Of a stretch of 64,000 nucleotides of DNA, positions 28,015 to 58,551 are shown piece by piece. The translations under genes were made by a program, and so were the position numbers. The stretch spans positions 944,688-1,008,687 of the forward strand of contig NZ_CABWIB010000001.1 of NCBI RefSeq assembly GCF_902505095.1. Reading direction: 5' to 3'. Within the stretch, counting starts at the first letter, position 1, and the number at the start of each line of letters is the position of its first letter. This stretch comes from Oceanivirga miroungae. GTDB lineage: Bacteria; Fusobacteriota; Fusobacteriia; Fusobacteriales; Leptotrichiaceae. The notes under the pieces are model-generated. The model saw only the letters and a list, made by a program, of their open reading frames with translations. It searched no databases and was not told the origin of the DNA.

Positions 28015-28037
28015 AAAAAAAGGTGGGCTAACCCACC
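28015..28037 (-). terminator. Terminator of the RNase P RNA gene
   Basis: Minus strand hairpin GGTGGG-TTAG-CCCACC followed by seven T, beginning two bases after the 3' end of the RNase P RNA. Confidence 0.9.
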
Positions 28038-28038
28038 C

Positions 28039-28359
28039 GGTATTTAATAAGCCGAATTTTGTTTATGTTAATCATTTATCTAGATATATATTTGCATATA
28101 TATTCAAGCGAATACCCAAAAGATATTGCGAGCAACAACTTTTTATCTTTAACTTTTCTTGCTTCAAAAGGGGTTTACCGATGAATTTAGTCCCCTAAAC
28201 TCATAGTGAGCTCTTACCTCACTGTTTCACCCTTACAGTTCCCTGCGGTTTGTTTTCTGTGGCACTTTCCTTAGGATTACTCCTAGCATCCGTTAGATGC
28301 CTTTTTGCTCTATGAAGTTCGGACTTTCCTCTATATTTCAAGCGATTAACTTAAATACC
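28039..28359 (-). ncRNA. rnpB: RNase P RNA (M1-type)
   Basis: About 321 nt. The minus strand carries the conserved 5' GAGGAAAGTCCGAACTTC, the central AACTGTAAGGGTGAAACAG and GGTAAGAGCTCAC, and the 3' ACAAAATTCGGCTTAT. The ends were placed by the P1 helix: GGTATTTAA at the 5' end (28351-28359) pairs perfectly with TTAAATACC at the 3' end (28039-28047). The RNA is the catalytic part of RNase P, which matures tRNA 5' ends. It has its own promoter and terminator. The length is at the short end for bacterial RNase P RNA. Confidence 0.96.
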
Positions 28360-55832: not shown

Positions 55833-56579
55833 CTATCCTTCTATTATGTTACTCATTTTATCTATACTTTCTTTTAATTTATCAACATAAAACATTTTAC
55901 CTCTTGTATCATCTAGTGGTATAGATATGCTAATAGCTCCCACTATTTCCCCTTTTATGTTTTTTATTGGTGCTCCTATACAGTAAACACCTAACTGATA
56001 TTCTTCATATTCAGTAGAATATCCATTTTTTCTTATTCTTTTTAAATCTTGAAGTAATGTATCAAAACTTGTTATAGTTCTTGATGTATATTTAATTATT
56101 TCACTACTATCCCATATTTTTTTAACTTCTTCTTGATCTTTATAAGCTAAAATAGCTTTTCCTGAAGATGTACAATACATAGGTGCTTTTTTACCAATTT
56201 TCCCTTGTTTTATTATATTCTTATCTTTTTTAGGTACATATTTATCAATATATATTATTTCATTACCATCTTGTATAACGAAATTAATTTCTTGTTCTAC
56301 TTCATTTGCTAATTTTGTAATAATACGCTTGGAAACTGCAACATAATCAAAATTTTGAACAGCTCTATTCCCTAACCTAAACATTTTAAAAGTTAGGGCA
56401 TATTTTTTGTTTTTTAACTGCCTTATGTACATATTATCTTTTAATGATACTAATATACGATAAGTTGTAGTCTTATTTAATCCAACTTTTTTACTTATGC
56501 TAGTTAATCCAGCTTCTCCTTCTTCAGATATTATTTCTAATACTTTAAGTGCTCTATCTAAACTTTGTAGCGTCGGCAT
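55833..56579 (-). CDS. IclR family transcriptional regulator
   Basis: 248 residues. N-terminal winged helix-turn-helix (SLDRALKVLEIISEEGEAGLTSISKKVGLNKTTTYRIL) and C-terminal effector domain with YIDKYVPK, MYCTSSGKAILAY and YCIGAPIKNIKGEIVGAISIS. These are standard IclR features; the ligand is unknown. The start follows GAGGTGG. It lies directly downstream of the structured RNA and its T-run, upstream of relA, so it may be partly transcribed from the RNA promoter. Confidence 0.92.
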   Translation of the reverse strand: MPTLQSLDRALKVLEIISEEGEAGLTSISKKVGLNKTTTYRILVSLKDNMYIRQLKNKKYALTFKMFRLGNRAVQNFDYVAVSKRIITKLANEVEQEINFVIQDGNEIIYIDKYVPKKDKNIIKQGKIGKKAPMYCTSSGKAILAYKDQEEVKKIWDSSEIIKYTSRTITSFDTLLQDLKRIRKNGYSTEYEEYQLGVYCIGAPIKNIKGEIVGAISISIPLDDTRGKMFYVDKLKESIDKMSNIIEG

Positions 56580-56605: not shown

Positions 56606-56787
56606 TAAAAAAACTAGAGAATGCAATTTTTTTGGTTGCCTTTAAAAGCAAGTGGTAGCCATTTATCAAATATGTATAGTATCCGTAAAGCTCACTAGGT
56701 CTTTCGTGATTTGTCTAAGCCATAGGTGACAGAGACAGCCCCAATAATATTGAGTAAAGCCCAAAAAAATCTATTTTTTCTCTAGTT
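56606..56787 (-). ncRNA. Structured non-coding RNA of unknown class (6S-like candidate)
   Basis: About 180 nt on the minus strand. The ends pair: AACTAGAGAA at the 5' side (56778-56787) with TTCTCTAGTT (56612-56621), the latter followed by a run of T, giving a closing helix plus terminator. Inside that, TTTTTTTGG pairs with CCAAAAAAA. A promoter with perfect consensus boxes precedes it. The size, closing helix and strong promoter suit 6S RNA, but I do not recognise its sequence and it does not match tmRNA, SRP RNA, RNase P or the riboswitch classes I know. It could instead be a leader of the IclR-type gene. Confidence 0.7.
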
Positions 56788-56792
56788 AATTA

Positions 56793-56822
56793 ATTATATA
56801 TTTTTTTACTTATTATTGTCAA
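56793..56822 (-). promoter_or_regulatory. Consensus promoter of the structured RNA
   Basis: Minus strand TTGACA (56817-56822), 18-base spacer, TATAAT (56793-56798). Both boxes are perfect. The -35 box overlaps the end of aspS. The predicted start is about 56786, at the foot of the closing helix. Confidence 0.85.
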
Positions 56823-58551
56823 CAATTTTTTTCAGCTTTAAATCTTCCTCTAATTGTTTTAAATCAACCTCTCCTGGTGCATTTGTAAGTAAGTCTTGAC
56901 CTTTATTGTTTTTTGGAAATGGTATTACTTCTTTAATACTATCTTCATTTAACATAACCATAAGCCATCTATCTACACCAAATGCAAGTCCTCCATGTGG
57001 CGGAACTCCATATTTTAGAGCTTCTAGGAAGAAACCAAATTTATTTTCTTGCTCATCTTTATCAATTAGTAATCTATCAAATACCAGTGATTGTAAATTT
57101 GCGTCGTGTATTCTAATACTTCCTCCACCAATTTCAAATCCATTTAATACTAAGTCATAAGCATCTGTTTTTATATCTTCTAATTTATTTTCTTCTAATA
57201 ATTTAATATCTTCATCTTTAACTTTAGTAAATGGATGGTGCTGTGCTTTATATCTTTTTTCTTCTTCACTATATTCAAACATAGGGAAATCCACTACCCA
57301 TAAGAAGTTATATTTACTCTTATCAATTAAATTTAACTCATTTGCAAGTTTTAGTCTTAGTGCACCTAATGCATTTAATACAACATTTTTTTCTCCAGCT
57401 ATAGAAAAGAAAGTACTTTCATTTTCTAGAGCTATGTATGATTCTAATTCATTTTTTATTTCATCATTTAAGAACTTGTATATAGGAGAATTTACTTCAT
57501 CATTCTCTTTTTTTATAACAACAAGTCCTTTAGCACCATAGTAATTTTTTACAAAATCTTCTAAGTCTTTTACTTGTTTTCTACTAAATAAAGAGTTTAC
57601 TTTTATTCCCTTTATATATTTAGCTTCATTAAATACAGAAAATTCACTATTTTTTACTATATCTTTAATATCTATTAATTTCATTTCAAATCTTGTATCT
57701 GGTTTATCAGAACCGTAGTTTTCCATAGCATAATCATATGTTATTCTTGGGAATGTATAAGTAACTTCAGTTCCAACCACATCTTTAAATACTTTTTTAG
57801 CTAAACCTTCAACAAAAGTTATTATGTCTTCTTGATGAACAAAACTCATTTCTAAGTCTAATTGTGTAAATTCTGGTTGTCTATCAGCTCTTAAATCTTC
57901 ATCTCTAAAACATTTTGCTAATTGATAGTATTTATCTATACCAGCTATCATTAGTGTTTGTTTAAATAACTGAGGTGATTGTGGTAATGCATAAAAGTCA
58001 CCTTTTGAAGTTCTACTAGGTACAATAAAGTCACGAGCTCCTTCAGGTGTTGCTTTTCCAAGTATTGGAGTATCTACATCTAAAAACCCATTTTCTGTCA
58101 TATAGCTTCTAATTGAATAAAACATTTGATTTCTTTTCATAATATTATTTAACATTTTAGATCTTCTTAAATCTAAATATCTATGTTTTAATCTTATTGC
58201 TTCATTTTGTATATTATCATCACTTATTTCAAATGGTAATTGTTTTGAACTTGATAATATTTCTATATTTTCTGCAGTTACTTCAATATCACCTGTTTCT
58301 ATCTTACTATTAACACTTGATCTTTTAGTTACAGTACCTTCTACTTTTATTACGTATTCTTTAGAAATCTTTTTTATATCTTCTAATAAGTCTTTTTCTT
58401 TTATTAGAACTTGTGTAATCCCGTATCTATCTCTTAAATCTATAAAAGCAAAAGATCCTAAATCACGAATTTTACTTACCCAACCAGCTAATGTAACTTT
58501 TTTCCCTTCATCACTTAATCTTAGCTCATTTAATTTATGTGTTCTATACAT
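56806..58551 (-). CDS. aspS: Aspartyl-tRNA synthetase
   Basis: 581 residues, bacterial type with the GAD insertion domain. N-terminal OB fold (VTLAGWVSKIRDLGSFAFIDLRDRYGITQV), class II motif 1 near FLDVDTPILGKATPEGARDF, motif 2 FRDEDLRADRQPEFTQLDLEMSF and motif 3 GLAFGVDRWLMVMLNE. It charges tRNA-Asp. It overlaps hisS by one base (co-transcribed) and carries the promoter of the structured RNA at its 3' end. Confidence 0.98.
   Translation of the reverse strand: MYRTHKLNELRLSDEGKKVTLAGWVSKIRDLGSFAFIDLRDRYGITQVLIKEKDLLEDIKKISKEYVIKVEGTVTKRSSVNSKIETGDIEVTAENIEILSSSKQLPFEISDDNIQNEAIRLKHRYLDLRRSKMLNNIMKRNQMFYSIRSYMTENGFLDVDTPILGKATPEGARDFIVPSRTSKGDFYALPQSPQLFKQTLMIAGIDKYYQLAKCFRDEDLRADRQPEFTQLDLEMSFVHQEDIITFVEGLAKKVFKDVVGTEVTYTFPRITYDYAMENYGSDKPDTRFEMKLIDIKDIVKNSEFSVFNEAKYIKGIKVNSLFSRKQVKDLEDFVKNYYGAKGLVVIKKENDEVNSPIYKFLNDEIKNELESYIALENESTFFSIAGEKNVVLNALGALRLKLANELNLIDKSKYNFLWVVDFPMFEYSEEEKRYKAQHHPFTKVKDEDIKLLEENKLEDIKTDAYDLVLNGFEIGGGSIRIHDANLQSLVFDRLLIDKDEQENKFGFFLEALKYGVPPHGGLAFGVDRWLMVMLNEDSIKEVIPFPKNNKGQDLLTNAPGEVDLKQLEEDLKLKKIVDNNK

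What the first reader, a model, noticed from the sequence alone, without database searches (positions are those of the whole stretch)
56606..56787. Strongly promoted structured RNA of unidentified class
A perfect TTGACA-18-TATAAT promoter drives about 180 nt with a ten-pair closing helix, an inner nine-pair helix and a terminal T-run. Such strength and structure are typical of abundant housekeeping RNAs. It may be the 6S RNA of this group, or a new RNA or riboswitch in front of the IclR-type gene. I could not match it to known conserved motifs.
Basis: partly seen in the sequence, partly recalled or inferred. Interest (0 to 1): 0.7.

Follow-up and report, generated by a model that had tools for sequence, protein, structure and literature searches.

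The report
Diverged 6S RNA of Leptotrichiaceae bacteria
This stretch encodes this bacterium's 6S RNA, a well-known small RNA that parks the main RNA polymerase when growth stops; it is ordinary in kind, but it has drifted so far that the standard RNA database model does not recognise it here or in most of its bacterial order.

Summary
A perfect TTGACA-18-TATAAT promoter on the MINUS strand precedes a ~180-nt structured RNA (56787->56606).

RF00013 (6S) does not hit the window, even at E = 10. But the blastn orthologue of this RNA in Leptotrichia sits exactly where RF00013 hits above its gathering score (up to 54 bits), over the full model. A covariance model built from the family finds exactly one copy in 94 of 96 Fusobacteriales genomes (77 of 77 near-complete ones), where RF00013 passes its cut-off in only 20.

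The terminal arm shows strong covariation, and the anatomy is that of 6S. The gene lies directly behind aspS across the order, while its downstream neighbour varies; iclR is downstream only here, which excludes a cis-regulator of iclR.

What is unusual is sequence drift: the window's branch has lost the UUCG...CGGYA closing-stem motif of its relatives. Function (binding of sigma70-RNAP holoenzyme, pRNA-driven release) is inferred from homology; no transcript data were available. Verdict: new member of a known kind, modest interest.

The parts
56793..56822 (-). Sigma70-type promoter: -35 TTGACA (56822-56817), 18-bp spacer, -10 TATAAT (56798-56793)
   Evidence: Read directly; 12/12 consensus, 0 of 100 shuffles as good; TTGAMA-17-TATAAT-like promoters at the same place in most orthologues
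56606..56787 (-). 6S RNA (ssrS) gene, predicted transcript ~180 nt from TSS ~56787-56785 to the U-run
   Evidence: Orthology to RF00013 hits; model R1 match 56772-56624, 132 bits
56778..56787 (-). Closing stem P1, 5' strand AACUAGAGAA
   Evidence: 10 Watson-Crick pairs with 56612-56621; arms of orthologues with other sequences also pair
56612..56621 (-). Closing stem P1, 3' strand UUCUCUAGUU, directly followed by the U-run
56756..56771 (-). Helix P2, 5' strand (...UUUUUUUGG-GCUUU)
   Evidence: 88.7% of cells paired, covariation modest because most positions hardly vary
56625..56643 (-). Helix P2, 3' strand (AAAGGC-AA-CCAAAAAAAUU)
56743..56755 (-). 5' side of the central bubble
   Evidence: Unpaired in the consensus; not conserved in sequence beyond its P2-proximal end
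56753..56767 (-). Predicted pRNA template UUUUUGGGCUUUACU; pRNA ~5'-(AG)UAAAGCCCAAAAA, start uncertain by about 2 nt
   Evidence: 15 columns identical in 13 orthologues; position by alignment with RF00013 and the E. coli start (own knowledge); inferred, not shown
56644..56653 (-). 3' side of the central bubble, with a short hairpin that competes with the 3' strand of P2
   Evidence: Helix 6 (86% and 78% of cells paired, some two-sided changes); weak (about 3 pairs) in the window itself
56654..56742 (-). Long terminal arm (upstream duplex plus apical loop, with conserved AUCACG...ACGGAU)
   Evidence: Strong covariation in helices 1-5
56607..56613 (-). U-run at the 3' end, terminator-like together with the closing stem
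   Evidence: Read directly
56806..58551 (-). aspS (aspartyl-tRNA synthetase), conserved upstream neighbour
   Evidence: Pfam PF00152, PF01336, PF02938; upstream on the same strand in 27 of 46 loci

Best explanation
The locus is the 6S RNA gene (ssrS) of this Leptotrichiaceae genome. It is transcribed from its own strong sigma70 promoter behind aspS and makes a ~180-nt RNA. Shown by sequence: a rod closed by P1 and P2, an open central bubble, a short alternative hairpin on the 3' side of the bubble that shares nucleotides with P2, and a long terminal arm. Inferred from 6S biology: the bubble mimics an open promoter and captures the housekeeping sigma factor-RNA polymerase holoenzyme, mainly when growth slows. 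When nucleotides return, polymerase uses the 5' side of the bubble and P2 as template for a short product RNA, here predicted to begin near 5'-(AG)UAAAGCCC. This opens P2 and frees its 3' strand for the 3'-bubble hairpin, as in E. coli, and releases the enzyme.
For: Blastn orthologues in 13 Leptotrichiaceae genomes, window included. RF00013 above gathering score at the same coordinates in four of them (G003:C1:927604-927806, G012, G021, G008) and in 20 genomes in all, aligned over model positions 1-187. Model R1: one match in 94 of 96 genomes of the order, 77 of 77 near-complete ones; only chance matches in four unrelated genomes (best E 1.7). Sub-threshold RF00013 matches at the same loci in further families (L080 43.8, L085 35.5, L086 32.3 bits). 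Covariation: 245 two-sided cells vs 82 in shuffles, 93.7% paired vs at most 45% when slid. Closing-stem motif UUCG...CGGYA in most relatives. Synteny with aspS. No second copy in the genome.
Against: RF00013 itself does not report the window sequence. The UUCG...CGGYA motif is absent from the window and its nearest relatives. The lowest-energy fold of the window RNA alone (-46.2) differs from the 6S form, which reaches -41.6 kcal/mol. P2 is mostly invariant and the 3'-bubble hairpin weak, hence little tested. R1 does not hit E. coli ssrS. There is no RNA-seq, RNAP-binding or pRNA evidence.
Confidence: 0.95

Rival explanations
1. A cis-acting riboswitch or leader controlling the downstream IclR-type gene.
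For: It lies between aspS and iclR, in the same orientation as iclR, about 27 nt before its start codon.
Against: The RNA is conserved across the order, but iclR is downstream in 1 of 46 loci; elsewhere the neighbour is mutL-like, argS-like, another gene or a gene on the opposite strand. The 3' end is a stem plus U-run, and the 5' and 3' ends pair with each other, as in a free-standing RNA.
Confidence: 0.01
2. A new RNA class, specific to Fusobacteria, that merely resembles 6S in outline.
For: RF00013 misses the window and most of the order (76 of 96 genomes not over the cut-off).
Against: RF00013 scores above cut-off at the orthologous locus in 20 genomes over the whole model, with one match per genome. 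The closing-stem motif and bubble anatomy match 6S.
Confidence: 0.03
3. An Ms1-like RNA that binds the RNA polymerase core rather than the holoenzyme.
For: Ms1 is structurally related to 6S (PMC9130861), so outline structure alone cannot separate them.
Against: Ms1 is described from Actinobacteria (PMC9130861); here RF00013, not any other Rfam family, matches the orthologues.
Confidence: 0.01

Closest known systems
6S RNA / SsrS (Rfam RF00013), e.g. Leptotrichia loci found here and E. coli ssrS
   Same: Length, closing stem, P2, central bubble, 3'-bubble hairpin sharing P2 nucleotides, long terminal arm, own sigma70 promoter, one copy per genome, orthologous locus scored above the gathering threshold
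   Different: Window sequence scores below detection; A+U-rich; UUCG...CGGYA closing-stem motif lost and outer stem replaced by a plain helix; gene behind aspS rather than between zapA and fau as in E. coli
B. subtilis 6S-1 RNA
   Same: Short 3'-bubble hairpin and central-bubble architecture (PMC8876501)
   Different: Here the 3'-bubble hairpin shares nucleotides with the P2 3' strand, which is nearer the E. coli-type release switch described in PMC8876501; this is inferred, not shown
Ms1 RNA of Actinobacteria
   Same: 6S-like outline (PMC9130861)
   Different: Binds core polymerase; described from Actinobacteria in that paper

Membership tests
6S RNA (RF00013) | Homology to the curated family, tested at the orthologous locus in relatives | tested here: met
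   RF00013 over gathering score in 20 genomes, including the same coordinates as blastn orthologues of the window RNA
6S RNA (RF00013) | Score of the window sequence itself against RF00013 (a detection criterion, not a biological one) | tested here: not met
   No match at E <= 10, none in the genome; the same model also misses most orthologues in the order
6S RNA (RF00013) | Closing stem, P2, open central bubble, long terminal arm, ~180-200 nt | tested here: met
   Covariation and pairing; for P2 the support is conservation more than covariation
6S RNA (RF00013) | Closing-stem sequence motif (UUCG opposite CGGYA), common in the family but not taken here as defining | tested here: not met
   Absent in the window and in L002, L003, L004, L006; present in Leptotrichia and most Fusobacteriaceae loci
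6S RNA (RF00013) | Free-standing gene with its own promoter, present throughout the lineage | tested here: met
   Promoter, 94 of 96 genomes, one copy each, variable downstream gene
6S RNA (RF00013) | Binds sigma70/sigmaA-RNA polymerase holoenzyme and inhibits transcription | not testable with these tools
   Needs pull-down or in vitro transcription
6S RNA (RF00013) | Serves as template for product RNA (pRNA) that releases polymerase | not testable with these tools
   Predicted template 56753-56767 only by alignment
Riboswitch/leader of iclR | Conserved association with the regulated downstream gene | tested here: not met
   iclR downstream in 1 of 46 loci
Ms1 RNA | Binds core RNA polymerase | not testable with these tools
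   Needs pull-down

The most novel reading that the evidence does not exclude
In the small-genome Leptotrichiaceae, 6S RNA has been remodelled: the outer closing stem lost its conserved motif and became a plain helix that may double as the transcription terminator. If so, the contacts with polymerase or the release step may differ from those of model 6S RNAs.
Probability: 0.15. Interest if true: 0.45.

Novelty: new member of a known kind. Interest (0 to 1): 0.3.

Why it matters
It gives this lineage a 6S RNA that the standard Rfam search does not find, and shows that most of the order (RF00013 over cut-off in 20 genomes, homologue in 94 of 96) is under-annotated for a central regulator of transcription. 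A lineage-specific covariance model fixes this. It also gives a testable pRNA sequence and a set of naturally diverged 6S RNAs for studying which parts the polymerase needs.

Tried and rejected
Rfam at gathering threshold and at E = 10 on the window: no 6S hit, only a chance PreQ1 match on the other strand. The plus strand as the RNA: weaker fold. First alignment with unoriented loci discarded and redone. L014, L015 and L016 are short chance blastn matches, not orthologues (L015 does not align). R1 against E. coli ssrS gave nothing: the model is lineage-specific, so the link to 6S rests on RF00013 in Leptotrichia. The pattern scan of named genomes gave four non-fusobacterial matches, in genomes where R1 finds nothing significant: chance. 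Two papers I wanted, the 2021 F. nucleatum RNA map and the 2014 survey of 6S RNA, are not held, so I could not check whether a fusobacterial 6S RNA has been published; from memory it may have been.

Full report
Observation. TTGACA (56822-56817), 18 bp, TATAAT (56798-56793) is exact, and the -35 box lies in the last codons of aspS. From about 56787 the RNA runs to a U-run at 56613-56607. It folds with -46.2 kcal/mol, z = -4.1, 0 of 200 shuffles as good.

Known-family search. Rfam at gathering score finds only RNase P in the window. At E <= 10 on the element, nothing sensible appears. RF00013 finds nothing in the whole genome.

Conservation and identity. Blastn of 187 bases finds orthologues at 66-81% identity in twelve other Leptotrichiaceae genomes. 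Record lengths match named species: G021 is Leptotrichia hongkongensis and G022 is Streptobacillus notomytis. RF00013 run over the order scores above its cut-off in 20 of 96 genomes, and in G003, G012, G021 and G008 the RF00013 match contains the blastn orthologue of the window RNA. In L012 the match covers model positions 1-187 with 54.3 bits, E = 2e-10. So the element is the 6S RNA gene, in a branch where the sequence has drifted below the detection of the general model.

Order-wide model. A covariance model (R1) from 26 core sequences scores the window at 132 bits. It finds one and only one match in 94 of 96 Fusobacteriales genomes; the two without a match are incomplete assemblies (86% and 62%), and all 77 near-complete genomes have it. 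Four unrelated genomes give only chance matches (best E 1.7). In loci from other genera and families that were not in R1, RF00013 also gives weak matches at the same place (L080, L085, L086).

Covariation. On 46 aligned loci the terminal arm and the 3'-bubble hairpin have 93.7% of cells paired, against 77.5% in shuffles and at most 45% when partners are slid; 22 of 32 pairs have two-sided changes. This alignment was fitted to the model and leans towards it, but RNAalifold on the MAFFT alignments finds the same arm, as does the count on the MAFFT alignment A5. P2 is paired in 88.7% of cells, but most of its positions hardly vary, so it is supported by conservation more than by covariation. The closing arms pair better than shuffled arms in all 40 loci tested (z between -1.9 and -5.6). 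The minimum-energy fold of the window RNA alone replaces the 6S arm by other hairpins at -46.2, against -41.6 kcal/mol for the 6S form; covariation favours the 6S form.

What differs. Leptotrichia and most Fusobacteriaceae loci keep UUCG (or a near variant) opposite CGGYA in the closing stem, as in E. coli ssrS. The window and L002, L003, L004 and L006 have instead a plain helix with CUAGAG/CUCUAG-like ends. This loss probably explains the missing RF00013 hit (inference).

Context. aspS is upstream on the same strand in 27 of 46 loci across four families (26 of them close by), and the downstream gene differs: argS-like, mutL-like, others; iclR only here (the names argS and mutL are from recognising the sequences, not from a search). 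Promoters of the TTGAMA-17-TATAAT type stand before most copies. This is a free-standing gene, not an iclR leader.

Mechanism. From established 6S biology (PMC8876501 and references there), the RNA should bind the housekeeping holoenzyme through its open bubble, and be released when the enzyme copies the 5' bubble strand and P2 into pRNA. The 15-nt stretch UUUUUGGGCUUUACU (56767-56753), identical in all 13 Leptotrichiaceae, covers the expected template; the start is uncertain by about 2 nt. The short 3'-bubble hairpin uses the same bases as the 3' strand of P2, so opening of P2 would allow it to form, as in the E. coli scheme. None of these steps was shown here.

Verdict. A real, well-conserved, ordinary 6S RNA in a lineage where the standard model misses it. 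Whether a fusobacterial 6S RNA has already been published could not be checked, because the relevant papers are not held.

Noticed in passing
window 28035-28359, minus strand: Bacterial RNase P RNA class A (RF00010, 241 bits), the only Rfam gathering-level hit in the window.
   Followed up: no
Fusobacteriales genomes, e.g. L072-L091: RF00013 is over its cut-off in no Fusobacteriaceae (f4) genome although all but one of them carry the R1 homologue: a sensitivity gap in the public model.
   Followed up: partly
L083 (G071) 1501-1650: A second, apparently independent loss of the UUCG/CGGYA closing-stem motif, with a different strong closing helix.
   Followed up: no
L037, L038, L040, L041 (genus g9): P2 in this genus has UUUUUGUUCU instead of UUUUUGGGCU opposite an unchanged 3' strand, so P2 looks weaker and the compact CCUGA...UCAGG bubble hairpin stronger.
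   Followed up: no
window 55833-56579, minus strand: IclR-family regulator between 6S RNA and a RelA/SpoT-type gene; this gene was seen behind the 6S RNA in no other locus examined.
   Followed up: partly
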